Shown: one piece after another, positions 7,893 to 35,345 of the stretch
Position numbering within the stretch: the stretch's first letter is position 1
Layout: each line of letters begins with the position of its first letter
From: Treponema sp.
GTDB taxonomy: Bacteria; Spirochaetota; Spirochaetia; Treponematales; Breznakiellaceae
DNA length: 44,180 bases
Assembly (NCBI GenBank): GCA_009787775.1
Contig: WQSQ01000001.1
Location: forward strand, 65,924-110,103
Direction: 5' to 3'
Program-made: the position numbers and the translations under genes
Notes under the pieces: model-generated
The model's input: the letters and a program-made list of their open reading frames with translations, nothing else
What the model was told of the DNA's origin: nothing
The model's database searches: none

Positions 7893-8290
7893 GAGTGACT
7901 CTGGTTATAAGCTGAAACCGCAGGCAGTTTAAGCGCTCACATGCTTCTCTTTCTGCCTTAGAACTGGTTCATCCTGCAGTCTATAGTGATATATCACTTT
8001 AGCCTATAGTGGCAGTTCACTTTAGACTGTAGTTAACATTCACTATAGCCTATAGTGATATTTCACTATGGACTAATGTGATACGTTATACAAGGCTGGA
8101 CTTTTATATCAGAATATCAATGAACAATGCAGGAAAATACCTTAAATATGTATATACGGCTGTCGTTTCTGCGTGTTTAAGCAAATGAAGAAACGTAAAA
8201 ATATTTCCCTTTTCGGTCATGCAAACCGGCAGTTTCAACCCATATATGGCATGAAAACAAAATTTAAACAAAAAAATCTTGTCATTATTT
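7893..8290. other. Non-coding region containing a palindromic tandem array
   Basis: About 400 bp without a convincing gene. It contains the five-unit 23-bp array at 7979-8085. The rest is AT-rich, with an A-rich stretch leading to the GGAGG SD of the kinase gene; no clear -35/-10 pair was identified. Confidence 0.6.
7979..8085. repeat. 23-bp palindromic tandem array 1
   Basis: Contiguous units at 7979-8001, 8002-8024, 8025-8047 and 8048-8070, plus a partial fifth at 8071-8085, each exactly 23 bp. A unit reads roughly GCCTATAGTGATATTTCAC followed by TATA: inverted arms CTATAGTG / CACTTTAG or CACTATAG around a 5-nt centre. Because units abut, the junctions are also palindromic; at 8041-8057 CACTATAGCCTATAGTG is a near-perfect inverted repeat. 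Units differ by several substitutions, yet the arms mostly remain complementary. There are no spacers, so it is not a CRISPR. Confidence 0.85.
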
Positions 8291-8300
8291 GGAGGAAGAA

Positions 8301-8834
8301 ATGAAGAACATTATTTTTACCGGTATTCCCGGGAGCGGGAAATCAACGCTCGGCAGATACGCAGCTGACATATTGGGGTTGCCGTTCTATGACACCGACA
8401 CGTTAACAATTGAAAGACATCAATCATCAAGCAGCAGGCTCGATTTATTTGATTTAGCCAATGCAGGACAGTACCAGATTTCCCAAATCAGGATAATGGA
8501 CGAGCTGTCAAGGCTTAAAAGACCGGCGGTAATTTCTACCGGCGCCGAAGTAGCTTTAATACCGGAATGCGCGAAAATAATGAAAGAGAGCGGAATAGTT
8601 ATACTTGTTCAGCGCAAACCCAGGCTCATACTTAAGGATATGAAAAAAGACAGAAAAACCATCTTTGAGCATAACAGCAGGATGATTGACATCCACAGGG
8701 AAGAAATCAGGCTTTACAGGGAAGAATATTCAAAATATGAAGCATTAGCAGATTATGTTCTTGAAAATAACGGCAGCATGAATGAAGGGCTGGAAAAACT
8801 ATTAAAGATTGAAGCTATTACGGAGCTCGGTTAG
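8301..8834 (+). CDS. Shikimate kinase-like P-loop kinase
   Basis: 177 aa from ATG 8301, chosen because GGAGG (8291-8295) sits directly upstream; a longer in-frame TTG start overlaps that SD. Walker A is GIPGSGKST (residues 8-16). The DTD at 31-33 matches the Asp pair that binds shikimate and Mg in shikimate kinases, and STGAEVAL corresponds to the substrate glycine-rich G-G-G motif (here S-T-G-A). A lid-like basic segment (KDMKKDRKT) follows. Family length (about 170 aa) fits. The third-motif GGG is degenerate, so another small-molecule kinase of this fold is possible. The gene stands alone on the plus strand, converging with the V-ATPase genes. If real, it phosphorylates shikimate in aromatic amino-acid synthesis. 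Confidence 0.7.
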   Translation: MKNIIFTGIPGSGKSTLGRYAADILGLPFYDTDTLTIERHQSSSSRLDLFDLANAGQYQISQIRIMDELSRLKRPAVISTGAEVALIPECAKIMKESGIVILVQRKPRLILKDMKKDRKTIFEHNSRMIDIHREEIRLYREEYSKYEALADYVLENNGSMNEGLEKLLKIEAITELG

Positions 8835-8853
8835 TTTCGGAAAACCGCAATTA

Positions 8854-9204
8854 TTAAACATGGAGCCCAATCGCTTCGCGGATTGCTTCCACAAGCGTTT
8901 TCCTTCCTTCAAGCCTGCCTGAGATTCCAGGTATTTCAACCAATAGGGGATAGTGGCCTGACAGCTGCCAGTCAATTACCATGCTGCCCAGCCAGTCGGA
9001 TGTCTCCTCTGTCAGGAGCAATACCTGACATTCACTTGCGCTTGGAATAAAGGCAGGTAAATCGGCATTGCCGCTTTCTGAACCTTCGGTGATTTTTCTG
9101 AAAGCGGCGATTGCTTCCCCGGAGTTTCTTACAGCTATTCCGTTTATTCCGACAAAACGGAAAGCTGTTACAAGTTCTTCATCTCCAAGAAAGAAATAAT
9201 CCAA
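8854..9204 (-). CDS. V-type ATPase subunit F
   Basis: 116 aa. The start MDYFFLGDEELVTAFRFVGI plus VLLLTEETSDWL and PLLVEIPG are characteristic of the small Rossmann-like F subunit of V/A-type ATPases, which binds the central stalk. It follows subunit K by 12 nt in the same transcript and is its last gene, converging with the kinase gene 19 bp away. In a host-associated spirochete the complex probably couples Na+ or H+ movement to ATP. Confidence 0.85.
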   Translation of the reverse strand: MDYFFLGDEELVTAFRFVGINGIAVRNSGEAIAAFRKITEGSESGNADLPAFIPSASECQVLLLTEETSDWLGSMVIDWQLSGHYPLLVEIPGISGRLEGRKTLVEAIREAIGLHV

Positions 9205-9216
9205 TCATTGTCCCTT

Positions 9217-9525
9217 TTACATGAACAATATCAAAAGAGCGACAAGGAATCCCCAAAGGCAAATGCCTTCCGCAAGACCGGCATAAGGCAGGGCTTTCCC
9301 GAAAAGATCGGGGTTTTCGCTCATCGCGCCCATTGCGGCAGATCCTATCCGGCCTACAGCTATGCCGCCTGCAATGCAGGAGATTCCTACAGCAAGGGCC
9401 GCTGCGATATATCTGAGCGATCCTGCAAGGGATTCTTCGGAAGCATCGGCGTCCGCTGACTGTTCCTGGGCGAAGACTGCTGCGCCTGCAAGCAAAATAC
9501 ATAAAATTAAAAAAAGGCGTTTCAT
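9217..9525 (-). CDS. V-type ATPase subunit K (proteolipid, c-ring)
   Basis: 102 aa from ATG 9525, picked because AGGAG lies 7 nt upstream; a longer in-frame reading begins 30 nt earlier without an SD. The N-terminus is a cleavable-looking hydrophobic segment ending VFAQEQS. Two glycine/alanine-rich helices follow: LAVGISCIAGGIAVGRIGSA and LAEGICLWGFLVALLILF. The Glu of GLAEGI in the second helix is the ion-binding carboxylate expected in the rotor ring. It lies between subunits I and F. Confidence 0.92.
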   Translation of the reverse strand: MKRLFLILCILLAGAAVFAQEQSADADASEESLAGSLRYIAAALAVGISCIAGGIAVGRIGSAAMGAMSENPDLFGKALPYAGLAEGICLWGFLVALLILFM

Positions 9526-9585
9526 GTTAACTCCTAAGATATTATACTCACGCACTGTTTCAGGGAGAAGCGCTGCTTCTCGGCT

Positions 9586-11634
9586 TCACAGGGATGCGCT
9601 CTTATCCTTAAAACTGAAAGGCGCAAACTCTACGCCTGTCTCTATAAAAAATTTATTAAAGAACTCATAATATTGCAAGCGTATCACCTGTATAGCTACG
9701 ATTAAGCCTTCAAGCACAATTATTATAGCATTTCCCGCTATCATTATTAAAGCGGCTGATAAAGTACCCGTAATGCCGGAACTTGCAAGCTGAGCCGTAA
9801 AATAAAAAACAATAAACGAGAATACTGCGTGAGCGAGAGCGAACGCGCCAACTCTCAGAAAACTTACGGTATTGGAGAAATAAGTAGAAACCGTATCCAG
9901 AACTTCCACAAATCCTTCCATAACGAACGAAAGAAGCCCGTTTTCCAGAACAGGCTTTTCTCCTGCAATTAACCGCCAGATTACAGGTCCGAAGAAGATG
10001 CAAACGACAGGGACTAAAAGCCCGGCAAAATCATAAGCTTCAAAGCGTCCTCCCAGGATGATTCTAATAGCGATGAACAGGGCGTACCAGAAAAACACAA
10101 GCCCTGCAAGTCCTGTTTTGGAAAAGAAAGCTGCCTGAAATTTCCTGAACACGCAGCGGTTAAATATATTAATGATAAGGCCCAGTGAGTTTATTATTAC
10201 TCCGATGGCAACGGTAAAAGCGAAGAAATACAAAAGCTTTGTAATGCTTCCTCCTTCGCTTGCCATGGGCAGAATATGTAAAATCCGATCCATCGGATAT
10301 CCTGTAACGGCGGCGGTTACAGCTCTTGTTGGAGCGACAAGCAGATGTTCGTTTGTAAAAACAGAACCTGCAAGCAGTCCCATTATCATCGACGCGATTC
10401 CTACAGAGACAAGCGGAGTAGAATACTTTTTAAACTTTGATAGTCTCTTTGGAAACCATTTTATTAAAAACCCCGAAAAAAACAGCAGGAATCCCTGTCC
10501 TGCGTCACCGAACATTATTCCGAACATCAGCGTAAAAAAGAACGCGACAATTGCCGTAGGGTCAATTGTTCCGTATACAGGCGCGCCGTATGAAAATACA
10601 ATGCCTTCAAAACCCTTTACAAACGCGTTATGTTTCATTGCGACAGGAACTTTTTCCTTTCCGCTCTTTACAGACGGTATTTCATTGGGCGAATACGAAT
10701 GAACAGCAATTCTGCCTCCTGTCAATTTTGAAAGCTCCCTGATAATTTCCGCTTGTCTGTCAGCTACAATCCATCCGGAAAAATGGTACATGCTCTCTGT
10801 TGCGGTAAACCGTAACTTAATCTCCTCTATCACAAGCGCAATATTCCATTCATATGCAAGCTTCTTTAAATCTGGCGCGTAATTACTTCTTGCCTTTTCT
10901 TTCTCAGCATTTATATTTTCAAGTTCCTGCCCCAGTTTTTCATATTGTTCATTCATGCTTGTCATCATCTGCGCGGGTATTCCCCTGTAATTATCAGGTA
11001 CGGCAATAGGTTCAAAAGAAACTTTTTTAAGCTGCGAATCAAGGGCAAACCGTCCTTTCTTTGAACTTGCCGCAAGAATTCTGTTTTCATCCAGCGGAAT
11101 GATTACTGCGCGGTTTTTAAGGCTTTCGTTCAGTTCGGAGATTCCCTTTGAATCAAGTCGGCCGAAACGAAGGCACAGAAACGAAAGATGTTCAAAATCG
11201 GAAAAAGGCATGTTCATTTTTGAAAAAGCCCTTGCTTCGTTAATCGCTTCGCGTACGCGGCTTTTTTCATATTCTGTTTTGTTCTGACGATCTTTTAATC
11301 TCTCAATTTCGGAACAAAGACTTTCAACTAACGTCTCGTTTTTTTGCCGCCGTGTTTGAAAGTCGACGCCCTGAAAACCGGAAAACTGATTGTCTCCGCC
11401 GGAAGAAAGCGTCTCTTCATTCTTTGCCTCATGAAGATTAACGCCGATATATTCACCGGCATCGCCAAGGCGGGTAATAATATTTCTGATATTGGATATT
11501 TCCGGATTGTCGAATGTGCCTTCCTTTTCCGGAAATTGTATCGCGGCCTTTCTTCCCAGATAGTCAAGCACGTTGTCCATGTCGTTCTTCATGACAACCA
11601 GCTCAATAAATTTCATCTTGCGGGGACGCAGCAT
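9586..11634 (-). CDS. V-type ATPase subunit I (membrane stator, a-subunit homologue)
   Basis: 682 aa. The N-terminal about 330 residues are soluble and coiled-coil rich (MLRPRKMKFIELVVMKNDMD, repeated EKEKARSNYAPDLKK), and the C-terminal half has about 7-8 membrane helices with the typical FFFTLMFGIMFGDAGQGFLL segment, then NTVSFLRVGAFALAHAVFSF, which carries the essential Arg of the ion channel. Length and order match bacterial NtpI/AtpI. The start overlaps the stop of subunit C (ATGA), indicating translational coupling. Confidence 0.93.
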   Translation of the reverse strand: MLRPRKMKFIELVVMKNDMDNVLDYLGRKAAIQFPEKEGTFDNPEISNIRNIITRLGDAGEYIGVNLHEAKNEETLSSGGDNQFSGFQGVDFQTRRQKNETLVESLCSEIERLKDRQNKTEYEKSRVREAINEARAFSKMNMPFSDFEHLSFLCLRFGRLDSKGISELNESLKNRAVIIPLDENRILAASSKKGRFALDSQLKKVSFEPIAVPDNYRGIPAQMMTSMNEQYEKLGQELENINAEKEKARSNYAPDLKKLAYEWNIALVIEEIKLRFTATESMYHFSGWIVADRQAEIIRELSKLTGGRIAVHSYSPNEIPSVKSGKEKVPVAMKHNAFVKGFEGIVFSYGAPVYGTIDPTAIVAFFFTLMFGIMFGDAGQGFLLFFSGFLIKWFPKRLSKFKKYSTPLVSVGIASMIMGLLAGSVFTNEHLLVAPTRAVTAAVTGYPMDRILHILPMASEGGSITKLLYFFAFTVAIGVIINSLGLIINIFNRCVFRKFQAAFFSKTGLAGLVFFWYALFIAIRIILGGRFEAYDFAGLLVPVVCIFFGPVIWRLIAGEKPVLENGLLSFVMEGFVEVLDTVSTYFSNTVSFLRVGAFALAHAVFSFIVFYFTAQLASSGITGTLSAALIMIAGNAIIIVLEGLIVAIQVIRLQYYEFFNKFFIETGVEFAPFSFKDKSASL

Positions 11635-12707
11635 CAGGACACCTCTCTTTTAAAAGACGGCAGTATTTTAAAAATTGTACCGCTGTCCATACCGAGAGCA
11701 AGTCCTTCCGCGACGCTTGTAAGGAGATCTTCTTCAAACATTTTCAGTTTGATAAAGCAAAAGATCGCGCCTACCGACATGGGAGAGGAGTGAAAACCGT
11801 GAAACGCAAGATGGTACAGATATTCAGATGCGGCATTCTGAAAATAACGCGGATCCGCTGACCAGTGCGCCGCTGAAGGGTGTACAGTTCCGGAAGGATA
11901 CACCGTATCCTCATGATTTAAAAACCTCTCCCATCTCCAGCCTTGCCAGTTCTCCCGGATATCCAGAGAAAAATCCAGAGAGCTTTTTGCTTCTGCGTTA
12001 AGTGACGCTCTTTTTTGATGAATATTGCCGAGCAGTTTATAATCCATCAGGTATTTTGCCGTTTCAATCTCACTTTTTTGATAATAAGTCCGAAGCCGCA
12101 ATGCCCAGAAGCAATTACGAAGCGATATTTCATCGGCGATAAGGCGGGAAGCTGTTTCGCGATCATCATAATCAAGCTGTGACAGACTCTCTATGAGGCT
12201 TTGGTAAAAGCGGTAATCAATTTTTGCGTCAATGGAAATCAGGTCAGCTCCTTTTTTAATGGATTTAATATCGGAAGAAAGCAGACTTTCAAACTCTGTT
12301 TTTTTAATCATTGCCTCAATATCAGGGTATGCGTCAAAGCGGACAGTTTTAAAACGGCCAATGTCGCTGATTACTGGCAAATCGTCTTTTCCGCCTGCTA
12401 TATGCGCAAGACACTCTTTTAGATCGCTGTATTCAAACCCTTTAAGCATGCGTATTAAGAGCCTCGGCGGCTGCGAATAAGATTTAACAACTCCCAATAT
12501 CTGCTTTACACACCTCTGGATAATCCGCTTTTCAAGACTCGGGAGCAATTCTCTGCCGGGAAGTTCACGGTAGCTGTCGGGAAATATTTGCCTGTCAAAA
12601 TCACTTAATGTATGCAGCCCTGAGAGAAATGATATTCGTTTCCCCAAAAAAGACTTTCCGATGATCCAGCTTGCTTTGGCATAGGCATAGCCTGAGTCAG
12701 TCCACAT
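11634..12707 (-). CDS. V-type ATPase subunit C (d-like, central-stalk adaptor)
   Basis: 357 aa, soluble and mostly helical. It begins MWTDSGYAYAKASWIIGKSF, and the YAYAKARI-like N-terminal helix is typical of V-type ATP synthase subunit C (NtpC/AtpC), which seats the stalk on the K ring. The C-terminal part AFHGFHSSPMSVGAIFCFIK, then LKMFEEDLLTSVAEGLALGM, matches the family's closing 'Y-x-K-x-x-E-x-x-N-L-R-x-I' region in position but is divergent. A GGGAG-type SD precedes ATG 12707. Gene order (small coiled-coil, C, I, K, F) supports the call. Divergence makes confidence lower than for I and K. Confidence 0.78.
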   Translation of the reverse strand: MWTDSGYAYAKASWIIGKSFLGKRISFLSGLHTLSDFDRQIFPDSYRELPGRELLPSLEKRIIQRCVKQILGVVKSYSQPPRLLIRMLKGFEYSDLKECLAHIAGGKDDLPVISDIGRFKTVRFDAYPDIEAMIKKTEFESLLSSDIKSIKKGADLISIDAKIDYRFYQSLIESLSQLDYDDRETASRLIADEISLRNCFWALRLRTYYQKSEIETAKYLMDYKLLGNIHQKRASLNAEAKSSLDFSLDIRENWQGWRWERFLNHEDTVYPSGTVHPSAAHWSADPRYFQNAASEYLYHLAFHGFHSSPMSVGAIFCFIKLKMFEEDLLTSVAEGLALGMDSGTIFKILPSFKREVS

Positions 12708-12719
12708 TGTCGGCTCTCC

Positions 12720-13040
12720 CTATTTTGAGCCGGTTGATTCAATTAATATACATTCATTAAAGAGAGCGCAAAACGCTTCCTTATCAACGCTTAATGCGGA
12801 AATCTCTCTGCGGTAATCATCCAGCGCCCTGTTATACTGTGTTTTAACTTTTTCAATTTCTTCATTCAGCAGGGACAGATGTTTCTTTATTTCCGACTTG
12901 TACCGTTCATCAAAGGCAAGGCGGTTTTTCTCATTGTTTTCGTGTATGCGCCGATCCGCTTCCTTTTGCGCGTCTTCTACAATAGCAGCGGCTGATGCTT
13001 CGACTTCCAGCAAATGATCAAGTGTCTTGTTATTTACCAT
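12720..13040 (-). CDS. Coiled-coil peripheral-stalk subunit candidate (V-ATPase H/G-like)
   Basis: 106 aa from ATG 13040; a TTG at 13049, overlapping the preceding TGA stop, is an alternative start 3 codons earlier, and neither has a clear SD. The sequence is one long charged helix: LDHLLEVEASAAAIVEDAQK, then EADRRIHENNEKNRLAFDER and EIKKHLSLLNEEIEKVKTQ. The 'EA-A-IVEDA-EADR' opening is typical of the E/G/H peripheral-stalk subunits of A/V-type ATPases. It lies between ptsN and subunit C and probably tethers V1 to subunit I. No separate long E subunit is visible in the window. Confidence 0.65.
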   Translation of the reverse strand: MVNNKTLDHLLEVEASAAAIVEDAQKEADRRIHENNEKNRLAFDERYKSEIKKHLSLLNEEIEKVKTQYNRALDDYRREISALSVDKEAFCALFNECILIESTGSK

Positions 13041-13045
13041 AACGA

Positions 13046-13519
13046 TCAATTCTGGGTGGAAAGCATTTCTTCAAATTTGCGTATTACTTTAAAAGCGCTT
13101 TGCGGATCCTTCTGTGCCTGAAGCTCAATCTGGAACTGCGGAATTTCAATCAGCTCAGCAAGATGTTTCAAAAGCCGTAGATATTTTTCCGAATCCTCCA
13201 AAGGTGAAATAATCAGGAAAAACAGATACACAGGCTCCCCGTCAAGAGCGTCGTAGTGTACGCCTTTCTGCGATATTCCGAGAGTGCCGCGCAGTGTATT
13301 TACGGCGTTTGTTTTACCGTGGGGAACAGCAATGCCTTTGTGAATTCCTGTCGACATTTTCGCTTCACGCCGTGTTATCGCCTTCAGGATTTCATCATGG
13401 GAACGGGAATTATCAACCAGACAATAATGGGCGACCAATTCCTCGAATACTTCGTCTTTATCTTCAGCCTCAATGCCTATTTTGATAAACTCAGGCAGCA
13501 ATACATCCTGCAGAATCAT
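13046..13519 (-). CDS. ptsN: PTS EIIA-Ntr-type regulatory phosphocarrier
   Basis: 157 aa. It has the fructose-type EIIA fold: ILQDVLLPEFIKIGIEAEDK, then TRREAKMSTGIHKGIAVPHG with the phosphorylatable His67 in GIAVPHGK, and LGISQKGVHYDALDGEPVYL. No EIIB/EIIC or HPr genes are adjacent, which favours a regulatory EIIA-Ntr role over sugar uptake. It lies 39 nt after secG, and its stop overlaps or abuts the start of the V-ATPase stalk gene, so it may be co-transcribed with the ATPase. Known EIIA-Ntr proteins regulate nitrogen, potassium and stress responses; a role in ion-pump control here is speculation. Confidence 0.88.
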   Translation of the reverse strand: MILQDVLLPEFIKIGIEAEDKDEVFEELVAHYCLVDNSRSHDEILKAITRREAKMSTGIHKGIAVPHGKTNAVNTLRGTLGISQKGVHYDALDGEPVYLFFLIISPLEDSEKYLRLLKHLAELIEIPQFQIELQAQKDPQSAFKVIRKFEEMLSTQN

Positions 13520-13558
13520 AATATACCTCTGCTATAAAACCTATAAAATCCCCGCGCC

Positions 13559-13981
13559 CTAATTATTATTTCCAAAGTTTTCATTGAAAAAATCATCATC
13601 CAGTAATTGTTCAAACGTGAAATCCTCAAAAGGAAGATTATTAACGGGGGGCAGCGGGGACGGATTCAACTCTTCTTCCAGCCAGTTAACACCTGCTTCC
13701 TGGGAAGAGATTCTTCTGGCTTCCTCTTCAACACCGGCTCCCACCGTAGTGCGGCTGAGAAACGCCAGACCAAGACTGATAATAAGGAATAACGATCCAA
13801 GTACAGTGGTAGCGCGCGTAAGAACATTGCCGGAGCGCGATCCAAACGCGGTATTTGCTCCCCCGCCAAACATGCCGCCGAAACCGCCGCCGCCTTCATC
13901 ATTCTGAATCAAAACTAATAATATAAGCAACACCGCAACTATTACAAAAAAGACCAGTAAAACCACATTTAAAATTCCCAT
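13559..13981 (-). CDS. secG: Protein translocase subunit SecG
   Basis: 140 aa from ATG 13981 (SD GGAG 9 nt upstream; an upstream TTG is part of the SD and rejected). It has two membrane helices: ILNVVLLVFFVIVAVLLILL, then the conserved QNDEGGGGFGGMFGGG loop followed by TAFGSRSGNVLTRAT, and the second helix TVLGSLFLIISLGLAFLS. The acidic, Pro/Asn-rich tail (about residues 82-140) is longer than in many SecG proteins. It forms the SecYEG channel. First gene of the transcript running into ptsN and the V-ATPase genes. Confidence 0.93.
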   Translation of the reverse strand: MGILNVVLLVFFVIVAVLLILLVLIQNDEGGGGFGGMFGGGANTAFGSRSGNVLTRATTVLGSLFLIISLGLAFLSRTTVGAGVEEEARRISSQEAGVNWLEEELNPSPLPPVNNLPFEDFTFEQLLDDDFFNENFGNNN

Positions 13982-14022
13982 TTCTACAAGCTCCAAAATT
14001 AATATAAATTAATATGGACTTC

Positions 14023-14051
14023 AGTATATAGAATCTAAAAAATAAATGCAA
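14023..14051 (-). promoter_or_regulatory. Sigma70-like promoter of the secG transcript
   Basis: Minus strand TTGCAT (14046-14051), 17-nt spacer, TATACT (14023-14028), 41 nt before the secG ATG. Good match and spacing. Confidence 0.65.
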
Positions 14052-14076
14052 GTTACTCTTGTTCTTTATACCCGAG

Positions 14077-14121
14077 GCTGTTCCAAAACTTTCAAATCGA
14101 AGGTTGTGTTTTTGGAACAGC
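14077..14121. repeat. Long inverted repeat (12-bp arms)
   Basis: GCTGTTCCAAAA (14077-14088) pairs perfectly with TTTTGGAACAGC (14110-14121) across a 21-nt loop. There is no T-tract on either side, so a simple rho-independent terminator is not supported. The loop resembles part of the GTTGT-type interspersed element. Confidence 0.7.
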
Positions 14122-14240
14122 TGCCTAACTAAAACACAGAAAAAAGACCAGACCTGTTCGGCAACTTGGTCGGTTGTCCCACAAGTCCTGTATTTTTTCG
14201 GGATAAAGCATTATTTAAATGCGGTTACATAAGTAAGTTT

Positions 14241-14285
14241 CAAACTTCGTTTGGCCCGGAAACTTCAGTTTCCGGACAACTCTTA
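14241..14285 (-). repeat. Interspersed double-hairpin element, copy A
   Basis: Small hairpin CAAAC-TTC-GTTTG (14241-14253), then CCGGAAAC-TTCA-GTTTCCGG (14256-14275), closing with ACAACTCT. It shares the first hairpin and the closing GGAC/GAAC-AACTCT with copy B at 33.7 kb, but the main stem sequence differs while staying paired. It lies downstream of the minus-strand rubrerythrin gene. Confidence 0.8.
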
Positions 14286-14392
14286 TGTTTTCTAACCGCA
14301 AAGGCGCACAAACATCATAAAGGAAGGATGAAGTTTTTTCTTCTCTTTGCTCACCTGCGAACCCTTGGTTCGATTCGCTTTTGCGGTTTATT

Positions 14393-14932
14393 TTAAAAGT
14401 ATCTTTTAAGCAAACCCTTAAAGCCGGAGCAGTGGCGGGCTTCATCGCGGGCCATTTCGTGTACCGTATCGTGAATAGCGTCCAGGCCCTTTTCTTTCGC
14501 TCTTTTTGCTATGTCGGTTTTTCCGGCGCAGGCTCCTTTTTCGGCTTCAATTCTCAATTCAAGGTTTTTCTTTGTGCTGTCTGTTATCACTTCGCCTAAC
14601 AGTTCCGCGAATTTGGCGGCATGTTCGGCTTCTTCAAACGCATAACGCTGATAAGCGTCTGCTATTTCCGGATAACCTTCACGCTCTGCAACACGACTCA
14701 TTGCCAGATACATTCCGACTTCGCAGCATTCACCGTTAAAATGCGCCTGTAAATCTTTTATAATGTCCGCATCAACTCCCTTTGCGACTCCTACAACATG
14801 TTCTGCCGCATAGCCGCCTTCTGCCGTCTGTTCTTTGAATTTTGATGCCGGAACTTTACATACAGGGCAGGCGTCAGGCGCACTGTCTCCTGTATGAACA
14901 TAACCGCAAACTGTACAAACCCATTTCTTCAT
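14393..14932 (-). CDS. Reverse rubrerythrin (NADH/peroxide-detoxifying non-haem iron protein)
   Basis: 179 aa. An N-terminal rubredoxin-like [Fe(SCys)4] knuckle (C6-x2-C9, C22-x2-C25) precedes the ferritin-like four-helix diiron domain, with helix motifs [20 protein letters not shown], then [18 protein letters not shown] and a final [16 protein letters not shown]. The domain order (rubredoxin first) is the reverse of classical rubrerythrin, as in clostridial 'revRbr', which reduces H2O2 in anaerobes. AGGAG SD before ATG 14932. The leader holds TTATAATGATAGAAA, an imperfect match (11 of 14 informative positions) to the PerR box, so peroxide control is possible but weakly supported. Confidence 0.9.
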
Positions 14933-15023
14933 AATGATCTCCTGAAATTAAATTTCTATCATTATAATGCACGGTACCAGAATTTGATAGTTTAAATTTA
15001 AATATTACAAACTGCTAAATGTA

Positions 15024-25880: not shown

Positions 25881-25891
25881 TATTAACAGAT

Positions 25892-25920: not shown

Positions 25921-25924
25921 GTAT

Positions 25925-29068: not shown

Positions 29069-29084
29069 GGAATCTCCTGTAATT

Positions 29085-30398
29085 CTATATATCCTTTGGA
29101 CGTGTGTCTTTTACCCTGACCGCCTTGCCTTCAGAAATGGGAAGAGAGCCGCTTTCATGCAGTTCAACCTTTGGATTAATTGAGATTGATACTTTCAGCA
29201 TTTCTTTGATTTTATCTTTAAGCGCATTTAAAAGACGGGAGTCATCCATGAATGTGTTTGCGTTTACTTCTGTTTTTACGGTAAGTCTGTCAAGTGCGCC
29301 ATCTTTTTCTACAACAATAAGGTAATTGTTGCCTACTTCCTTCATTGCCATGATCACTTCTTCGATCTGGCTTGGAAAAACATTTACTCCGTTGATGATA
29401 AGCATATCATCGCTTCGTCCTGTTATACGCCGGAGTTTTCTGTGTGTTCTTCCGCAGGCACATGGTTCTGTGTAAAAGGAAGTAAGGTCTCTGGTTCTGT
29501 AGCGCAGTAAAGGAGTTGTTTCCCTGCAAAGGATTGTAAGGACGAGCTCTCCGCTCTCGCCTTCTTTTACAGGCTCCAAAGTATCGGGATTTACAATCTC
29601 TGCGATGTATCCGTCTTCCCAGATATGAAGCCCGTCTTTACACTGACATTCAAAGGCAACACCGGGCCCGTTCATTTCCGAAAGGCCGTATGAATTATAA
29701 ACATCGACTTTTAGTAAAGTCTCAATCCGCTTTCTTGTATCTTCCGAGTAAGGCTCCGCTCCTCCAAATGCTTTTTTAATTGACAGGCTTTCCCTTTCTA
29801 CTCCCGCTTCTTTCATTTTTGTTTCCAAATGAAGAAGAAAGCTCGGTGTTGCGTGTAACACTGTTGTTCCGTAATCCTGCATCATTTTGAACTGGCGCGC
29901 AGTGTTTCCGGCTCCGGCGGGAATTACAAGCATTCCAACTTCTTCGCCGCCCTGATGAAAGCCCAGCCCGCCTGTGAAAAGGCCGTATGTGATCATGTTC
30001 TGAAACACGTCGTTTTTGGTGCAACCTGTTCCGTAAATGCAGCGCGCCATGAAGCTCGCCCAATTTTTTATATCATCGCGGTTAAAATAGATGACAGTGG
30101 GCGTGCCTGTAGTGCCGCTTGATGAATGAAGGCGGATAACGTCATCCTTGGGGATTGATAAAAATCCATAGGGGAAACCGTCTCGGAGGTCGCTTTTTGT
30201 GGTAAAAGGGATTCTGTTTAGATCGTTTAACGTTTTAATATCGTCAGGAGAGTTAATTCCGCATTTTGAAAGACGCTCTTTATAAAAAGGTGTACGAAGC
30301 GAATAACCGATTTCTGTTTTCAATTTCTGCAATTGCAGCGCTTCAAGATCGCCTCTCTGCATTTTTTCTATTTGAGGATCCCAATACTGATATGTCAT
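29085..30398 (-). CDS. paaK: Phenylacetate-CoA ligase
   Basis: 437 aa adenylate-forming enzyme. Core A3 motif SSGTTGTPTVIYFNRDD (near residue 92), A5 YNSYGLSEMNGPGVAFE, A7/A8 LRYRTRDLTSFYTEPCACGR and RITGRSDDMLIINGVNVFPS. Length and motifs match PaaK-type phenylacetate-CoA ligases, which activate aryl acetates with CoA and ATP. It starts 1 nt after iorB, an arrangement known from anaerobes where IorAB oxidatively decarboxylates aryl pyruvates to aryl-acetyl-CoA and PaaK-like ligases conserve or use the thioester. The GH gene follows on the same transcript. Confidence 0.92.
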   Translation of the reverse strand: MTYQYWDPQIEKMQRGDLEALQLQKLKTEIGYSLRTPFYKERLSKCGINSPDDIKTLNDLNRIPFTTKSDLRDGFPYGFLSIPKDDVIRLHSSSGTTGTPTVIYFNRDDIKNWASFMARCIYGTGCTKNDVFQNMITYGLFTGGLGFHQGGEEVGMLVIPAGAGNTARQFKMMQDYGTTVLHATPSFLLHLETKMKEAGVERESLSIKKAFGGAEPYSEDTRKRIETLLKVDVYNSYGLSEMNGPGVAFECQCKDGLHIWEDGYIAEIVNPDTLEPVKEGESGELVLTILCRETTPLLRYRTRDLTSFYTEPCACGRTHRKLRRITGRSDDMLIINGVNVFPSQIEEVIMAMKEVGNNYLIVVEKDGALDRLTVKTEVNANTFMDDSRLLNALKDKIKEMLKVSISINPKVELHESGSLPISEGKAVRVKDTRPKDI

Positions 30399-30399
30399 A

Positions 30400-30981
30400 T
30401 TATCCCGCTTTAGCGCAGGCTGCCTGCCCCAGTTTAAAAGCTTTTATATTGGAGAGAACTATATTCTCATCTTTTTTTGCGAAGACCTGCGAGATGATTT
30501 TTTCTATGTTTATTCCTTCTACTGGCAGGAAACACGAAGCCGCTCCTGTCATTACTGTATTTACCGATTTTTCTAGTCCTGCTTCTTTTGCGAGAGAGGC
30601 AGCTTCTATTATGCGCCATTTCGGGAGGCGTTTTATTGAAGAATGAACTCCGTTTATATCCGGATAATTTACCATATTGTTAAATGGTTCTGCTGCAGTA
30701 ACAAGGCATCCGTCAGGCTTTAAATAAGAAAGGTAGCGAAGGCTTTCAAGAGGTTCCATCGAAATAATTAAATCCGCTCCTCCCTTGGGCACAAGATCGC
30801 CTGCGATATCTTTATCAGAGATACGCAGATGAGCAAGAACTGCTCCTCCCCTTTGAGCCATGCCATGCACTTCGCTCTGGCGAACATTAAGCCCTTCGCT
30901 CATTGCCGCCTGAGCGATTATGGAAGCAACAGATAAAACTCCCTGCCCTCCGACACCCGCTAAAATAACATCGTACTTCAT
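30400..30981 (-). CDS. iorB: Indolepyruvate oxidoreductase subunit beta
   Basis: 193 aa. The gamma-type pyruvate-ferredoxin-oxidoreductase fold is evident: YDVILAGVGGQGVLSVASII, then VRQSEVHGMAQRGGAVLAHL and DLVPKGGADLIISMEPLESL. It matches IorB, the small subunit of indolepyruvate:ferredoxin oxidoreductase. IorA (TPP-binding, with ferredoxin-like clusters) would be required for activity but is not in the window: the next upstream gene is an ABC ATPase. No SD; the ATG is 6 nt after a CATAAT -10 with a TTGATT at 17-nt spacing, suggesting leaderless initiation. Confidence 0.9.
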   Translation of the reverse strand: MKYDVILAGVGGQGVLSVASIIAQAAMSEGLNVRQSEVHGMAQRGGAVLAHLRISDKDIAGDLVPKGGADLIISMEPLESLRYLSYLKPDGCLVTAAEPFNNMVNYPDINGVHSSIKRLPKWRIIEAASLAKEAGLEKSVNTVMTGAASCFLPVEGINIEKIISQVFAKKDENIVLSNIKAFKLGQAACAKAG

Positions 30982-30987
30982 GGGAAT

Positions 30988-31016
30988 ATTATGGTGAAAA
31001 AATTGAATTAAATCAA
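30988..31016 (-). promoter_or_regulatory. Promoter of iorB, leaderless arrangement
   Basis: Minus strand TTGATT (31011-31016), 17 nt, CATAAT (30988-30993), then 6 nt to the ATG (30979-30981). The predicted start of transcription falls on or next to the A of ATG. Confidence 0.55.
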
Positions 31017-31026
31017 CATAATTTTG

Positions 31027-31998
31027 TTATTCTGTAAATATTCGCTGAACGATATCCTCAATATCCTGCTCGTGAACAGAGATATTTTCAGGGTTATAAT
31101 GATTAATCAATGTGTTCAGCGCATCTTTGCAGCGGATGTTTTTTTCAACTTTGATATTCCAGATATTATTATCATTTCCTTTAAGCGTGAAACCCGGAAG
31201 CGCTTCCCATTCCGGAAGATCCGCAAATTCCATTTTTATCATAAAGCCGTCTTCGTAGAGGTTTTTAAAGTTCTCAAGACTGCCGTCAAAAAGTTTCCGC
31301 CCAAGGTCTATGACTATAAGCCGGTCGCAGACAGCTTCAATGTCGCTCATGTCATGAGTTGTTAAAATTATAGTCGTGTTCTTTTCGCGGTTCAAAGCTT
31401 TTATACCGCGGCGCAAATTTTTCCTGCTCATGACATCAAGTCCGATAGTCGGTTCATCAAGATAAAGCACATCAGGATCGTGCAGCATTGAAAGCGCGAG
31501 GTTAGCCTTCATTTTCTGTCCAAGGCTGAGCTGGCGTACGCTCTGATTGATAAATCCGCTCATGTCAAAAAGATCGATATACATTTCCTTATTATGATCG
31601 TATAACGCTTTTGGAATTTCATATAATTTTTGATAAAGGCTGAATGTATCGGACACCGGCAGATCCCAATAAAGCTGCGACCTCTGGCCGAAAACAACTC
31701 CGATTCTTTTCGCGTTTTTTTTACGTTCTTTATACGGAATAATGTCTCCTACTTTTATTTCACCTTCATCCGGGGTCAGCACTCCGCTCAGCATCTTGAT
31801 TGTGGTAGATTTCCCCGCGCCATTTGGTCCTATATATCCTGTTATTTCACCTTTTTCCAGCGAGAATGAAATATCCGATACGGCTTTTTTTATTTCGTAT
31901 TCACGATGAAAAAGCGATATAACGGCTCCGCAGAGTCCGGGTCGGTTCTTGAATATTTTAAAATTTTTTGATACATTCTTAACTTCGATAAAGGGCAT
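31027..31998 (-). CDS. ABC-2 exporter ATP-binding protein
   Basis: 323 aa, one ABC domain plus C-terminal extension. Walker A GPNGAGKST (about residue 57), Q-loop GVVFGQRSQLYWDLPV, signature LSLGQKMKANLA (a variant of LSGGQ typical of this subfamily), Walker B VLYLDEPTIGLD, H-loop LTTHDMSD. Third gene of the operon after two permeases (DUF990-type); the set forms a three-component exporter of unknown substrate (drug, lipid or polysaccharide). Confidence 0.88.
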   Translation of the reverse strand: MPFIEVKNVSKNFKIFKNRPGLCGAVISLFHREYEIKKAVSDISFSLEKGEITGYIGPNGAGKSTTIKMLSGVLTPDEGEIKVGDIIPYKERKKNAKRIGVVFGQRSQLYWDLPVSDTFSLYQKLYEIPKALYDHNKEMYIDLFDMSGFINQSVRQLSLGQKMKANLALSMLHDPDVLYLDEPTIGLDVMSRKNLRRGIKALNREKNTTIILTTHDMSDIEAVCDRLIVIDLGRKLFDGSLENFKNLYEDGFMIKMEFADLPEWEALPGFTLKGNDNNIWNIKVEKNIRCKDALNTLINHYNPENISVHEQDIEDIVQRIFTE

Positions 31999-32007
31999 AA
32001 TTTCTCC

Positions 32008-32823
32008 CTATGTTCCCGTACTTTGATATTTTGAAAGCGCCCAGTTCCAAAAAAGTATGCTTAAAACAAATAAAACAATTCCTGCCAAAGGAGAAAAATA
32101 GCCCAGATGAACGGGAAATGCGAACGGCATTTCCTTTTGTAAAACCGCGGATGAAGGATAGAAATTCATAAATGCAACCGGCACTATAAAGGTGAGAAAA
32201 ATCTGCAGGAACACAGGATAAATCCGTATCGGGTAATTTGTAAATGCTTTTATATCCCATAATAAATTAAAGATCGGGTTTTCATTTATCAGAAAAAAAC
32301 TGAAAGCCGAAGCGGCGATTAGGAAAGCTGATTGCACCAAAACCGCTCCAATCAACATTCCGAAAAATGTCAGTATTGATAATGGAGAAATGACAAATCC
32401 TGCGCTGATAAGGGCGAAAATCATTACTATTACAGATAAGGTTACATGGCTTAAATAACCGAAATTGAATCCCATATAAAACTCATGCCCAAAAGGGCTT
32501 ACAGGTTTTGTAAGAGCCGCGTCAAACTCGCCTGTGCGGATTTTAGACGCGAGATTTATGCACGGATTAAAGAAAAAACTTGCGCCTAACGCATAGGAAA
32601 GGAGGTTCATGGCGTAAAGAAACAGCACTTCCTGCGCCGTCCAGTCCGCTAGAAACTGAAAATTGCTTACCATGATGTACAGTGTGGCAAAAGCGGAACC
32701 ATAAGAGAGCCATTGGCCTGCGATCCCAGCCCAGAACGCGCTGCGGTGAGCCATCTGGCTGCGTATCGTAATTTTCGCGAAACTGAGGTACAGGCTTATT
32801 CTGCTTTGAATGTTATCCGCCAT
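32008..32823 (-). CDS. ABC-2 permease, DUF990 type (second of pair)
   Basis: 271 aa with about six membrane helices and a short amphipathic N-terminus (MADNIQSRISLYLSFAKIT). The motif AALTKPVSPFGHEFYMGF around residues 98-115 (basic, Pro/Gly) and the paired arrangement with the next gene match permeases of the COG3694/COG4587 families. It overlaps the upstream permease by 11 nt, indicating coupled translation. Confidence 0.85.
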   Translation of the reverse strand: MADNIQSRISLYLSFAKITIRSQMAHRSAFWAGIAGQWLSYGSAFATLYIMVSNFQFLADWTAQEVLFLYAMNLLSYALGASFFFNPCINLASKIRTGEFDAALTKPVSPFGHEFYMGFNFGYLSHVTLSVIVMIFALISAGFVISPLSILTFFGMLIGAVLVQSAFLIAASAFSFFLINENPIFNLLWDIKAFTNYPIRIYPVFLQIFLTFIVPVAFMNFYPSSAVLQKEMPFAFPVHLGYFSPLAGIVLFVLSILFWNWALSKYQSTGT

Positions 32824-33625
32824 TTATGGTTATTTTCCTTTGAGCTTTTATCCAGATAAGCTGTCCAATCAGAAACAAAAGCAATACCCACGAAAATGAA
32901 ACGCAAAGGGAAAACATTGAGTTTTCCAAAGACGCTTTTCCAAGATAATAATTAATTCCTTCAAATGAAATGTAGCGGAACGGCAGATAGACAGTAAGCC
33001 TTTCAAGAAAGCGCGGATAAAACCAAAGAGGAACGACAGTTCCGCCGAAAAATGTCACTCCGGCTCCCAAATACCATGACAGATACCATGTTGCCTGAGT
33101 CCAGAATGCCAAAAGCCCTGTTATATAAATCAGTTGAAACATAATAATAACGCCTGATAAAGTTAACGCCATGAATACAATTAAATGCGAAAAATCCGGC
33201 GGAGGCGGAAGACCGATAACAAGAGCGCATAAAATTACAACAGGAATAACCTGAGTAACCAATCTGTAAACATTTTTTCCCGTATGGACGCTGAATAAAT
33301 AAAGCTGATATGACACAGGACGCAGAAAATGCATTACAACAGAACCGTCCCGTATGGAATCACCCAGTTCATTGGCGAAGTTACCTCGGGTTAAAGCGCT
33401 TACCGCTTCTGTTAGTATTACAAACGCGATTATATCATTTACTGTTATTCCCTGACGAACACCTGAACCTATAAGGGAACTCCATAAAAAGAACTGTATT
33501 ACAACAAGTAAAAGTGATCCAAAAAACCCCATCACAGTCGCAAGATGATAGCTGATTTGTGATTTAAAAGCACCTGAAAAAAATGCTATATATTTAATAA
33601 AGCTGATGTAAAACCCCGATGCCAT
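32813..33625 (-). CDS. ABC-2 permease, DUF990 type (first of pair)
   Basis: 270 aa with about six membrane helices (FFGSLLLVVIQFFLWSSL, VIPVVILCALVIGLP, LTLSGVIIMFQLIYITGLL). The DGSVVMHFLRPVSYQLYLFS segment is the cytoplasmic loop also seen in its partner. First gene of the three-gene exporter. The ATG lies 5 nt after a consensus TATAAT with no SD, a leaderless layout. Confidence 0.85.
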   Translation of the reverse strand: MASGFYISFIKYIAFFSGAFKSQISYHLATVMGFFGSLLLVVIQFFLWSSLIGSGVRQGITVNDIIAFVILTEAVSALTRGNFANELGDSIRDGSVVMHFLRPVSYQLYLFSVHTGKNVYRLVTQVIPVVILCALVIGLPPPPDFSHLIVFMALTLSGVIIMFQLIYITGLLAFWTQATWYLSWYLGAGVTFFGGTVVPLWFYPRFLERLTVYLPFRYISFEGINYYLGKASLENSMFSLCVSFSWVLLLFLIGQLIWIKAQRKITINGG

Positions 33626-33630
33626 GACAT

Positions 33631-33660
33631 ATTATACATGAATTAGTTAAATGTATACAA
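33631..33660 (-). promoter_or_regulatory. Promoter of the ABC-2 exporter operon, leaderless arrangement
   Basis: Minus strand TTGTAT (33655-33660), 18-nt spacer, TATAAT (33631-33636), then 5 nt to the ATG (33623-33625). Confidence 0.62.
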
Positions 33661-33674
33661 TGGCAAGGAAGTAT

Positions 33675-33716
33675 CAAACTTCGTTTGGTTCAATAACTGA
33701 AGTTATCGAACAACTC
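33675..33716 (-). repeat. Interspersed double-hairpin element, copy B (supplies a stop codon)
   Basis: CAAAC-TTC-GTTTG (33675-33687) is followed by GTTCAATAACT / AGTTATCGAAC (33688-33711, one mismatch), then AACTCT. The minus strand reads GAGTTGTTCGATAACTTCAG: its GAT-AA.. gives the TAA stop at 33703 and the C-terminal VVR residues of the ribbon-helix-helix gene. Same layout as copy A but a different main stem. Confidence 0.8.
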
Positions 33717-33900
33717 TAATGTCATTTTTCTTCTTTCTTTTCTTTACACATTCGCTTAAAAGGAACTCTATCTGCCCATTTGTCGAACGAAAATCATCCT
33801 CTGCCCAGGCAGATAGTTCTCTCCACAACGAATCCGAAAGGCGAAGCAGAAATTGCTTTTTATCGCGCGGTGCTTCGCCGCAGGGCTCATCTTTACCCAT
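33703..33900 (-). CDS. Arc/ribbon-helix-helix-like small protein
   Basis: 65 aa. KKQFLLRLSDSLWRELSAWA, then EDDFRSTNGQIEFLLSECVK and KRKKKN, fits an Arc-type ribbon-helix-helix: a short strand (FLLRL), two helices, and the 'RS-N-x-x-I-E-x-L-L' feature. It starts 6 nt after the SPFH gene. Such Arc-family genes recur next to SPFH genes in many bacteria; it may bind DNA as an autoregulator. No toxin partner is visible. Its last residues and stop codon lie inside repeat element copy B, so the 3' end may have been altered by the element. Confidence 0.72.
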   Translation of the reverse strand: MGKDEPCGEAPRDKKQFLLRLSDSLWRELSAWAEDDFRSTNGQIEFLLSECVKKRKKKNDIRVVR

Positions 33901-33906
33901 TTTAAT

Positions 33907-34944
33907 TTAATATAATGAACCTGAGTTTACTACAGGCTGCGCATCACGGTTTCCGCACAATACGACAAGAAGATTGCTTACCATTGCCGCTTTTCTTTCT
34001 TCGTCAAGTTTGACTATACCGGTCTCATTTAATTTAGAAAGAGCCATTTCGACCATGCCTACAGCTCCCTGTACAATAAGTTGCCTTGCATCCACTACCG
34101 CAGAAGCCTGCTGACGCTGAAGCATTGCCGCAGCGATTTCCGGAGCGTAGTAAAGGTTTGTTATGCGCGCTTCTTGAATTTCAAGCCCGGCTATTTCAAC
34201 CTTGCTTTGTATCTCTTCTTTAAGTTTTACGGCAATTTCCTGGCTGGAACCGTGCAGGGATTTCTCGCCTGCGTCCTCGGACGCTCCGCTGTTGTATGAG
34301 TCATACGGATAAAGACGCACAATGTTGCGTAACGCAGAGTCGCATTGAATTGATAAAAATTCCTTGTAGTTGTCGACATTAAAAACAGCCTTTGCCGTGT
34401 TTACAACTTTCCAGATTACCACTATGCCAATCATTATCGGGTTTCCCAGCTGGTCGTTTACCTTTTGCTTTTCGTTATTCAATGTGGACGCTTTAAGCGA
34501 TATTTTCCTGCTTCCGGTACCAGGATTTACGTTTATTCTGGTTCCTTCGCTGAATGCCGATACCGTCTGGTTTAATGTCTGGGATTGGGTAGTGGTGCTC
34601 TGCGCGGGATTCACTCCGACGCAGAAGGGGTTTACATAGAAGAATCCTTCTTTCTTGATTGTGCCGACATACTTTCCGAAAAGGGTAAGTACTATAGCCT
34701 CGTTCGGTTTTATTATTTTCAGCCCCATGTAAAAAATTGGGCAGATAATAAAACCAACAAGAGTGCCGCCTATTACGCAGGCTAAACCAAGAGTGAAGTC
34801 TCTTTCGCCGTCCAAAAGTATAATACCGTAAACAAATACGGCAGTGCCGACAAGAATAAATAATGTAATAACAATTAATGCAAACATACCGCTTGAGGTT
34901 TTTTTCTCCATTTCCTCATAATGTATTTTTTCCGAATTTACCAT
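33907..34944 (-). CDS. SPFH/prohibitin-domain membrane protein
   Basis: 345 aa from ATG 34944 (GGAGG SD; an upstream in-frame TTG is part of it). Two N-terminal membrane helices (MFALIVITLFILVGTAVFVY, ACVIGGTLVGFIICPIFY), then an SPFH domain: LKIIKPNEAIVLTLFGKYVG, FFYVNPFCVGVNPAQ, GIVVIWKVVNTAKAVFNVDN, and the helical AGLEIQEARITNLYYAPEIA-x-x-M-L-Q-R-Q-Q-A. It is of the stomatin/flotillin-like type that forms membrane microdomain assemblies. Paired with the RHH gene. Upstream is the 23-bp palindromic array 2. Confidence 0.88.
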   Translation of the reverse strand: MVNSEKIHYEEMEKKTSSGMFALIVITLFILVGTAVFVYGIILLDGERDFTLGLACVIGGTLVGFIICPIFYMGLKIIKPNEAIVLTLFGKYVGTIKKEGFFYVNPFCVGVNPAQSTTTQSQTLNQTVSAFSEGTRINVNPGTGSRKISLKASTLNNEKQKVNDQLGNPIMIGIVVIWKVVNTAKAVFNVDNYKEFLSIQCDSALRNIVRLYPYDSYNSGASEDAGEKSLHGSSQEIAVKLKEEIQSKVEIAGLEIQEARITNLYYAPEIAAAMLQRQQASAVVDARQLIVQGAVGMVEMALSKLNETGIVKLDEERKAAMVSNLLVVLCGNRDAQPVVNSGSLY

Positions 34945-35030
34945 AAAACCCTCCAATATTAATATAATATCAAAATGATATCACAACAGTGAATTATTGT
35001 CAAGAAGATTTATCATAATCGAAAAAGAAA

Positions 35031-35345
35031 TTAATTCCTTTGTGCACCTTTGCCGTCTTTACAGCAAAAACACACAGCTATTATTTCCGGCAAAGAGAGT
35101 TTTACGGTAATATACTCTGTTGTACAAGGCTGGTACAACACACTGTACAAGGCTAGTACAACCCTTTGTACAAAGCTAGTACAACAGGCTAAATTAGGCT
35201 TAGTAAGCCTGTTGATACAGTCACATCTGGAATTCCAGGGCAGATTTAGCCGGATTTTATCTGTTTCCGGCATAAAGAGACTGTTATTACCTGAGATTCT
35301 TTGAGGGACAATGGAAAAGAATGAAATATGGTAAATGTAAAATCC
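35031..35345. other. Non-coding region containing palindromic array 2
   Basis: About 315 bp between the SPFH gene's upstream region and the lipoprotein stop. It carries the array at 35121-35189 and, just after, AGGCTTA-G-TAAGCCT (35196-35211), an odd palindrome. Small open frames here have no SD and low coding character; I call none. Confidence 0.6.
35121..35189. repeat. 23-bp palindromic tandem array 2
   Basis: Three contiguous 23-bp units, 35121-35143, 35144-35166 and 35167-35189. Each has TTGTAC / GTACAA arms (first T from the preceding base) around a 7-nt centre AAGGCTG, AAGGCTA or AAAGCTA. Same period and inverted-repeat design as array 1, but no sequence similarity to it. Confidence 0.85.

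What the first reader, a model, noticed from the sequence alone, without database searches (positions are those of the whole stretch)
7979..35189. Shared architecture of the two arrays despite unrelated sequence
Both arrays have exactly 23-bp period, no spacers and one inverted repeat per unit, though the nucleotides differ completely. This suggests a class of elements recognised by shape, or generated by one mechanism that tolerates any seed palindrome, rather than two independent accidents. Possible candidates are a RAYT-like nuclease, a DNA-structuring protein or replication slippage; none is encoded visibly in this window.
Basis: partly seen in the sequence, partly recalled or inferred. 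Interest (0 to 1): 0.7.

Follow-up and report, generated by a model that had tools for sequence, protein, structure and literature searches.

The report
Four 23-bp dyad repeat families
The two small repeat arrays belong to a set of about 69 arrays scattered between the genes of one uncultured Treponema-like bacterium, in four sequence families that all use the same 23-base spacing around a mirror-symmetric site, which suggests that the spacing rather than the sequence is what is kept, perhaps because a protein binds it.

Summary
Arrays 1 (F1) and 2 (F2) belong to families with 25 and 20 dispersed places in the window's own assembly. A sequence-blind scan found a third family, F3 (22 places), and a small fourth, F4 (2). 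In 60 arrays of F1-F3, 279 of 284 intervals are exactly 23 bp and 5 are 24. Each unit reads as two 9-nt arms about one base, with AG before the centre in all four, then 4 nt that vary much in F1 and F2, less in F3. In 844 kb of the assembly 32 period-23 places were found, none in one Markov null. Ten congeners sampled likewise have none; among five same-order genomes one has a C-rich 23-bp array without dyad. Arms show no compensatory change, so selected hairpins are unlikely. Best reading: array-level binding sites for a dimeric DNA-binding protein, F1 spreading as a leader-array-tail element like BrickBuilt of Porphyromonas gingivalis, which also has a 23-nt unit (PMC4596501). No binding protein or mobility mechanism is identified. 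RAYT is unsupported; slippage alone does not explain one fixed period.

The parts
7911..7979 (+). Leader segment of the F1 element
   Evidence: Aligned in 16 of 20 F1 loci examined, 201 substitutions and 1 gap in 1087 bp; window letters
7971..8081 (.). F1 array: five 23-bp units, core TCACTATAG-N-CTATAGTGA plus 4 variable nt; the first unit is degenerate and overlaps the leader end
8082..8145 (+). Tail segment of the F1 element; contains an F2-like TATACAAGGCTGG
   Evidence: Aligned in 18 of 20 F1 loci, 117 substitutions and 4 gaps in 1075 bp; window letters
35120..35184 (+). F2 array: three 23-bp units, core TTGTACAAG-G-CTAGTACAA plus 4 variable nt, no conserved flanks
   Evidence: only 4 of 40 F2 flanks match another F2 flank. 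Two ORFs of 80 and 84 aa overlap it, taken as chance

Best explanation
Arrays 1 and 2 belong to a set of about 69 short intergenic arrays (F1 25, F2 20, F3 22, F4 2 places) in one Treponema-like genome. Each array of F1-F3 is a row of 3-8 sites (9-1-9, AG before the centre base) set 23 bp apart (shown). Inferred: each site is bound as double-stranded DNA by a dimeric helix-turn-helix-type protein, neighbouring dimers touch, and a row of several sites, not a single site, is what works. The families would be versions read by paralogous proteins of one dimer geometry. F1 spread as a whole non-autonomous element (leader-array-tail); F2 and F3 occur mostly as bare arrays that also grow and shrink by whole units. 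What bound arrays do (chromosome organisation, insulation between genes, or only propagation of the element) is not known; my first guess is a nucleoid-organising or insulating role that does not depend on gene direction.
For: Fixed spacing: 279 of 284 intervals are 23 and 5 (all F2) are 24, in 344 units of 60 arrays. F1 arrays have 395 substitutions in 2553 bp and 0 intervals other than 23, while leader plus tail have 318 substitutions and 5 gaps in 2162 bp. Symmetry with independent halves: in the 18 of 20 F1 loci orientable by the tail, mirrored columns have nearly the same spectra (mean distance 0.07; for example T 0.83 C 0.15 against A 0.85 G 0.15), but pairing is no higher than in shuffles; likewise no excess pairing in F1-F3 about both centres or for a whole-array hairpin. 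Centre base and spacer are the least conserved positions of F1. Single cores outside arrays at 15 matching positions: F1 0, F2 4, F3 0, against permuted motifs 0.7, 3.4, 0.3, so the array seems to be the unit. No direction bias: convergent 13, divergent 10, co-directional 32, contig edge 5, of 60.
Against: No binding protein was identified and no binding measured. Mirror symmetry of the columns is strong only in F1 (distance 0.07; F2 0.23, F3 0.40). The dyad of F3 and F4 is not clearly better than shuffles. F3 departs from the dyad mostly by G-T on one strand (279 G-T against 74 A-C and 129 other), which fits RNA pairing as well. F3's spacer is mostly NGAT and F2's centre base is mostly G, so 'free' positions are not free in all families. 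At looser or stricter cut-offs a few solitary cores exceed the permuted motif (F3 9 against 4.5 at 14; F2 1 against 0.1 at 16). Leader and tail also have few gaps, so part of the length constancy may reflect recent copying. F1 units are related by descent (same-index identity in variable positions 0.482, against 0.25-0.36 within arrays), so they are not independent data. 11 of 60 arrays are overlapped by a short ORF of 84-124 aa and one longer ORF ends 18 nt inside an array.
Confidence: 0.43

Rival explanations
1. Selfish interspersed minisatellites of the BrickBuilt kind with no host role: a non-autonomous element carries a 23-bp array moved by a transposase; arrays outlive the ends (bare F2 and F3), and 23 bp is a by-product of how units are copied.
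For: F1 has leader and tail in 16 and 18 of 20 loci, like BrickBuilt (leader, 23-nt repeats, tail; 19 copies; intergenic: PMC4596501). Neighbouring units within an array are more alike in the variable positions than units of different arrays in F3 (lag 1 0.675 against 0.481) and F2 (0.525 against 0.450), showing local duplication. Near absence from congeners.
Against: Mere copying does not predict that F1 core positions stay conserved with mirrored spectra while the centre base and spacer drift, nor the same period in four families. No clear terminal inverted repeat was seen in the F1 alignment (judged by eye). No insertion sequence with matching ends was sought.
Confidence: 0.34
2. RNA or single-strand hairpin elements: each unit is a 9-bp stem with a 4-nt loop (or the whole array one long stem), acting as terminator, stabiliser or transposase substrate.
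For: Predicted folds are far stronger than shuffles for F1 (z -6.8 and -7.0 for the window array, -11.1 for L030) and for the one F3 array folded (-6.2, -4.4), weak for the F2 window array (-1.6, -0.9). F3 arms pair through G-U on one strand.
Against: No excess pairing over shuffled arms about either centre or across the whole array; no bias towards convergent over divergent gene pairs (13 against 10 of 60). Any symmetric double-strand site folds well, so fold energies do not discriminate.
Confidence: 0.11
3. REP/BIME-like palindromes moved by a RAYT (Y1) transposase.
For: Short intergenic dyads in many copies. Y1 transposases occur in 17 of the 38 other genus genomes searched.
Against: None in the window's own assembly (71% complete, so it may be missed). 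Cores occur almost only in arrays.
Confidence: 0.05
4. Two independent accidents of slippage.
For: Two- and three-copy tandem duplications of 20-24 bp do occur in relatives.
Against: 67 places of three families plus 2 of F4, one period, null 0.
Confidence: 0.01

Closest known systems
BrickBuilt minisatellite-MITE of Porphyromonas gingivalis (PMC4596501: abstract, passages and section 5 read)
   Same: 23-nt tandem unit, leader and tail segments, 19 copies, intergenic, narrow host range; its consensus also holds a dyad (8 of 11 pairs, 25 of 5000 shuffles as good).
   Different: Other phylum, unrelated-looking consensus (not aligned by tool), arrays up to 22.8 units, short terminal inverted repeats like IS5-family ISPg1/ISPg9 and 4-bp target duplications reported, also in some P. 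gulae strains. Here four families, 3-8 units in those measured, F2 and F3 mostly without shared ends, no clear terminal repeats.
BOX elements of Streptococcus pneumoniae (boxA-boxB(n)-boxC layout recalled; BOX mentioned in passages of PMC10969869)
   Same: End modules around a variable number of internal repeats (recalled), intergenic.
   Different: Other unit length and sequence (recalled); not compared by tool.
STAR elements of staphylococci (PMC3532100, abstract and outline read)
   Same: Interspersed intergenic direct repeats that expand and contract by locus.
   Different: Not compared by tool; no 9-1-9 dyad is mentioned in what I read.
Phage lambda type operator rows (recalled, no call)
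   Same: 17-19 bp symmetric sites centred about 23-24 bp apart, bound by touching dimers.
   Different: Lambda has three sites at two places; here about 69 arrays, and no repressor is known.
REP/BIME with RAYT (recalled; PMC3733652 seen in search listings only)
   Same: Short intergenic palindromes in many copies.
   Different: Strict tandem arrays at 23 bp, no RAYT found in this assembly.

Membership tests
BrickBuilt-type minisatellite-MITE | Tandem 23-nt unit without longer spacers | tested here: met
   279 of 284 intervals are 23, 5 are 24
BrickBuilt-type minisatellite-MITE | Conserved leader and tail | tested here: met
   F1 only: leader 16 of 20, tail 18 of 20. Not met for F2 and F3: 4 of 40 and 3 of 40 flanks shared
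BrickBuilt-type minisatellite-MITE | Terminal inverted repeats matching an insertion sequence | tested here: inconclusive
   None clear by eye in the F1 alignment; only a subterminal inverted TAC-AAGGCAG-like stretch. No IS comparison made
BrickBuilt-type minisatellite-MITE | Target-site duplication or empty site | not testable with these tools
   Congener DNA aligns over the genes but not over the array 2 intergene; tried at that one place
BrickBuilt-type minisatellite-MITE | Strictly intergenic | tested here: met
   55 of 60 have called ORFs on both sides, 5 on one side (contig edge); 11 of 60 overlapped by a short ORF of 84-124 aa judged spurious, and at L012 an ORF ends 18 nt inside
REP/BIME-RAYT | Y1 (RAYT) transposase in the genome | tested here: inconclusive
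   PF01797: no match in G000, which is 71% complete
REP/BIME-RAYT | GTAG or CGTC tag beside the palindrome | not tested
   Only the title and abstract start of PMC3733652 were seen
CRISPR array | Repeats separated by unique spacers of repeat-like length | tested here: not met
   Variable stretch is 4 nt
Structured RNA element | Compensatory base changes in the stem | tested here: not met
   no Rfam family reaches its gathering score at the window arrays
Operator array of a dimeric DNA-binding protein | Two-fold symmetric site with independent half-site substitution | tested here: met
   F1 clearly; F2 in part; F3 weak; F4 not resolved
Operator array of a dimeric DNA-binding protein | Known cognate protein | not testable with these tools
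   No candidate gene found

The most novel reading that the evidence does not exclude
There is a geometry-defined class of bacterial interspersed repeats: rows of 23-bp two-fold-symmetric sites whose spacing is kept while the sequence is free to change, with several families side by side in one genome and a counterpart (BrickBuilt) in another phylum, read by a family of dimeric proteins that polymerise along DNA.
Probability: 0.25. Interest if true: 0.8.

Novelty: new variant of a known kind. Interest (0 to 1): 0.55.

Why it matters
Bacterial repeats are normally sorted by sequence. Here four sequence families in one genome keep the same 23-bp period, three of them measured in detail, with almost no solitary copies, so the selected property appears to be an array of sites. 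If a protein binds them, about 69 loci (344 sites counted in 60 of them) would make a new kind of chromosome-wide binding system in spirochaetes. The match in unit length and dyad with BrickBuilt in another phylum makes the general question testable by a sequence-blind survey of closed genomes.

Tried and rejected
RNA hairpin selection: rejected for lack of compensation about the centre base, about the 4-nt loop and across the whole array. A negative association between half-sites seen by eye did not hold for F1 or F2 (1602 and 614 of 5000 shuffles as low) and held only for F3 (42 of 5000), so I do not use it.

My first symmetry score for F1 (0.047) mixed array orientations; I redid it on the 18 of 20 loci orientable by the tail (0.070). 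F2 and F3 scores (0.232, 0.397) were in one orientation already.

Phage or plasmid origin: no match of the joined F1-F3 query in plasmids or phages, nor of a full F1 element in plasmids. In IMG/VR an F1 half-pattern gave 10 stretches, each a single site without a 23-bp array; F3 gave none; F2 gave one single site. An exact F2 pattern gave nothing in genome contigs. These tools may leave out records of this genome or very near ones.

23-bp repeats in relatives that are not of this kind: TRF lists two- or three-copy 23-bp repeats in G007, G008 and G014 and a C-rich 3.9-copy one in G024; none has a dyad better than shuffles. The G307 array (657 of 3000 shuffles as good) and the 24-bp array of G258 (2269 of 3000) have no clear dyad either; the 24-bp array of G009 has one (8 of 3000).

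Empty-site test: tried at array 2 only; congener matches (mostly 65-80% identity) cover the neighbouring genes but not the array intergene.

RAYT: no match in G000.

Rows dropped: F1 has 25 distinct places (one, on C44, is a 33-bp match only), of which 20 were analysed; F2 20 of 20 (a 28-bp piece on C3 left out); F3 20 of 22 (a 37-bp piece on C17 left out); F4 2, leaving out two weak matches on C5, one of them at an F2 array. L045 and L049 (no tail) were dropped from the oriented F1 counts and from the array part. Terminal units were dropped. Five F2 arrays with a 24-bp interval were dropped.

Literature: searches found no paper with all their terms (23-bp, palindromic tandem repeats, Treponema or bacterial genome); others (32 papers, 15 listed; 8; 409, 12 listed) were seen as listings; from these and three papers were opened (PMC4596501, PMC3532100, PMC10969869); one search found 3 papers naming BrickBuilt; one search gave nothing used. 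Papers of subscription journals are mostly not in that library.
Full report
WHAT WAS CHECKED. The window is G000:C1:65924-110103 of a 2.04-Mb assembly in 109 contigs, 71% complete and 2.4% contaminated. The nearest named relative of its Band_7 protein is 77% identical and comes from 'Treponema sp. isolate Emb289P3bin139'. That this is a termite-gut sample, and that same-order genomes of 1.1 and 2.8 Mb are Treponema, is recalled. TRF confirms period 23 at both places. Array 1 lies between ORFs ending at 7638 and starting at 8289, array 2 between 34956 and 35360; two ORFs of 80 and 84 aa overlap array 2, taken as chance.

MANY LOCI, FOUR FAMILIES. The array 1 sequence (F1) recurs at 25 distinct places, one of them a 33-bp match, and array 2 (F2) at 20. 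A scan that ignores sequence found F3, which has 22 places, and F4, which has two good places. F4 resembles F2 (6 of 9 in the best half-sites), so the families may be fewer by descent. In 844 kb of this assembly (40 stretches from contigs C1-C40 and the window) the period-23 places number 32: F1 13, F2 10, F3 8, and 1 unassigned, which is F4. One first-order Markov null gives 0. Other periods found were 21, 24, 27, 42 and 48, all multiples of three, and 46, the double of 23. I checked reading frames only at L231, where the 21-bp arrays lie mostly in open frames.

ANATOMY. In 60 arrays (20 per family) I placed 344 units; 279 of 284 intervals are 23 and 5, all F2, are 24. In the phase that puts the dyad in the middle, F1 is TCACTATAG-N-CTATAGTGA, F2 is TTGTACAAG-G-CTAGTACAA and F3 is CGCGTCAAG-S-CTTGGTGTG, each followed by 4 nt. 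These 4 are the least conserved stretch in F1 and F2; in F3 they are mostly NGAT. All have AG before the centre base; after it F1, F2 and F4 have CT, F3 has C, A or T and then T. Three unrelated half-sites would share the two letters next to the centre with probability 0.0044, a figure chosen after looking. The dyad is stronger than shuffles for F1 (4 of 5000 as good) and F2 (17 of 5000), not clearly so for F3 (467) and F4 (696) (one consensus unit each).

SYMMETRIC BUT NOT PAIRED. In F1, oriented by its tail (18 of 20 loci, 111 units), mirrored positions have nearly the same substitution spectra; F2 and F3 are less symmetric. The two arms of F1 pair no better than arms shuffled among units: about the centre base 859 of 1000 shuffles reach the observed Watson-Crick value, about the 4-nt spacer 1000 of 1000. 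F2 and F3 show no excess either, nor does pairing across the whole array. The strong predicted folds follow from the symmetry itself. This is what independent half-site recognition in double-stranded DNA would leave; it is not what a selected stem would leave.

ARRAY, NOT SITE. At 15 or more matching positions, F1 has 69 cores in arrays and 0 outside (permuted motif 0.7), F2 40 and 4 (3.4), F3 39 and 0 (0.3). At 14, solitary F3 cores are 9 against 4.5; at 16, F2 has 1 against 0.1. An ordinary regulator would be expected to have solitary sites.

HOW THEY SPREAD. F1 is a composite element with leader (16 of 20) and tail (18 of 20); 31 of 40 F1 flanks match another F1 flank, against 4 of 40 for F2 and 3 of 40 for F3. 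Three F3 loci share 58-93 bp of flank at 90-94%, so some F3 copies may have moved with neighbouring DNA. F1 units at the same index from the tail agree more in the variable positions (0.482) than different units of one array (0.25-0.36), so the array was copied as a whole. F1 arrays with a tail have 4 to 7 units. In F3 and to a lesser degree F2, neighbours within an array are more alike than units of other arrays, which shows local duplication. One F1 locus (L003) lacks the leader and has an F2-like stretch there instead (F2 likeness judged by eye).

SPACING. F1 arrays carry 395 substitutions against index consensus in 2553 bp and no interval other than 23; leader and tail carry 318 substitutions and 5 gaps in 2162 bp. 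At the flank ratio about 6 gaps would be expected (my arithmetic). This suggests selection on spacing but is not strong, since copies share descent.

RELATIVES. The same scan found no period-23 place in 10 congeners (50-80 kb each, 725 kb); at the density here about 24 would be expected (my arithmetic). In 5 same-order genomes it found one outside runs of N, a C-rich array in G024; TRF also lists two- or three-copy 23-bp repeats in G007, G008 and G014. None of these has a dyad better than shuffles. By sequence, F2 has one relative, a 24-bp array in congener G009 with a clear dyad, among 38 relatives; F1 has one two-unit remnant at 23-bp spacing in congener G003, among 38 congeners; F3 has none in 38. 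In 391 other genomes of the phylum a joined query found one 23-bp array of near-identical copies, in G307, without a clear dyad; that search is insensitive, since in G000 itself it returned only 4 F3 matches. Three complete genomes of the same family, 100 kb each, have none at 23; one has a 24-bp array without a clear dyad.

CONTEXT. Of 60 arrays, 55 lie between ORFs and 5 have an ORF on one side only: 13 convergent, 10 divergent, 32 co-directional, 5 edge. 11 are overlapped by a short ORF (84-124 aa), and at L012 an ORF ends 18 nt inside. The lack of direction bias argues against a general role as terminator or promoter.

COMPARISON. BrickBuilt of P. gingivalis is the closest described thing that I found: 23-nt repeats in a leader-tail element, 19 intergenic copies, narrow host range (PMC4596501; abstract, passages and section 5 read). 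Its consensus also holds a dyad. F1 works like it in layout; membership is not claimed, since terminal repeats and target duplications were not shown. F2 and F3 fail the leader-tail feature.

VERDICT. The favoured mechanism is protein-bound arrays (0.43), with selfish minisatellites next (0.34). Shown: the loci, the spacing, symmetry without compensation (F1), the rarity of solitary sites and the near absence in sampled relatives. Inferred: a binding protein, cooperativity, and any cellular role.

Noticed in passing
L231 (G000:C40) 1490-2460: About 1 kb of 21-bp units (GTCATT... and TTTCTTACGAAAG...). A 266-aa ORF on the minus strand (1503-2303) is open through most of it, so it may code for a repeat protein.
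   Followed up: partly
window 8196-8260: A further short interspersed repeat next to the F1 element: this stretch matches five other places of the assembly (C33, C7, C3 twice, C72); similar letters stand beside the F3 array of L060 (by eye).
   Followed up: no
L004, L007 and L034 flanks: Homology beyond the F1 element: L004 and L007 share 300 bp of flank at 93%, L034 135 bp of it at 92-94%, so some copies moved or were duplicated with extra DNA.
   Followed up: no
L095, L101 and L109 flanks: Three F3 loci share 58-93 bp of flanking DNA at 90-94%, possibly another repeat that F3 arrays sit in or beside.
   Followed up: no
G015 (congener) L136:62-244 and L137:77-160: 43-bp tandem arrays of two different consensus sequences near the ends of two contigs.
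   Followed up: no
G258 L328:14712-14807: 24-bp array of four copies (TACTTGCAACGAAGTTTCCCGCGC) in a complete 4.06-Mb genome of the same family, no clear dyad.
   Followed up: partly
G307 L339:17444-17531: 23-bp array of nearly identical copies (GCTATCGGCAAACTTCTCTATAG) in a same-order genome, no clear dyad.
   Followed up: partly
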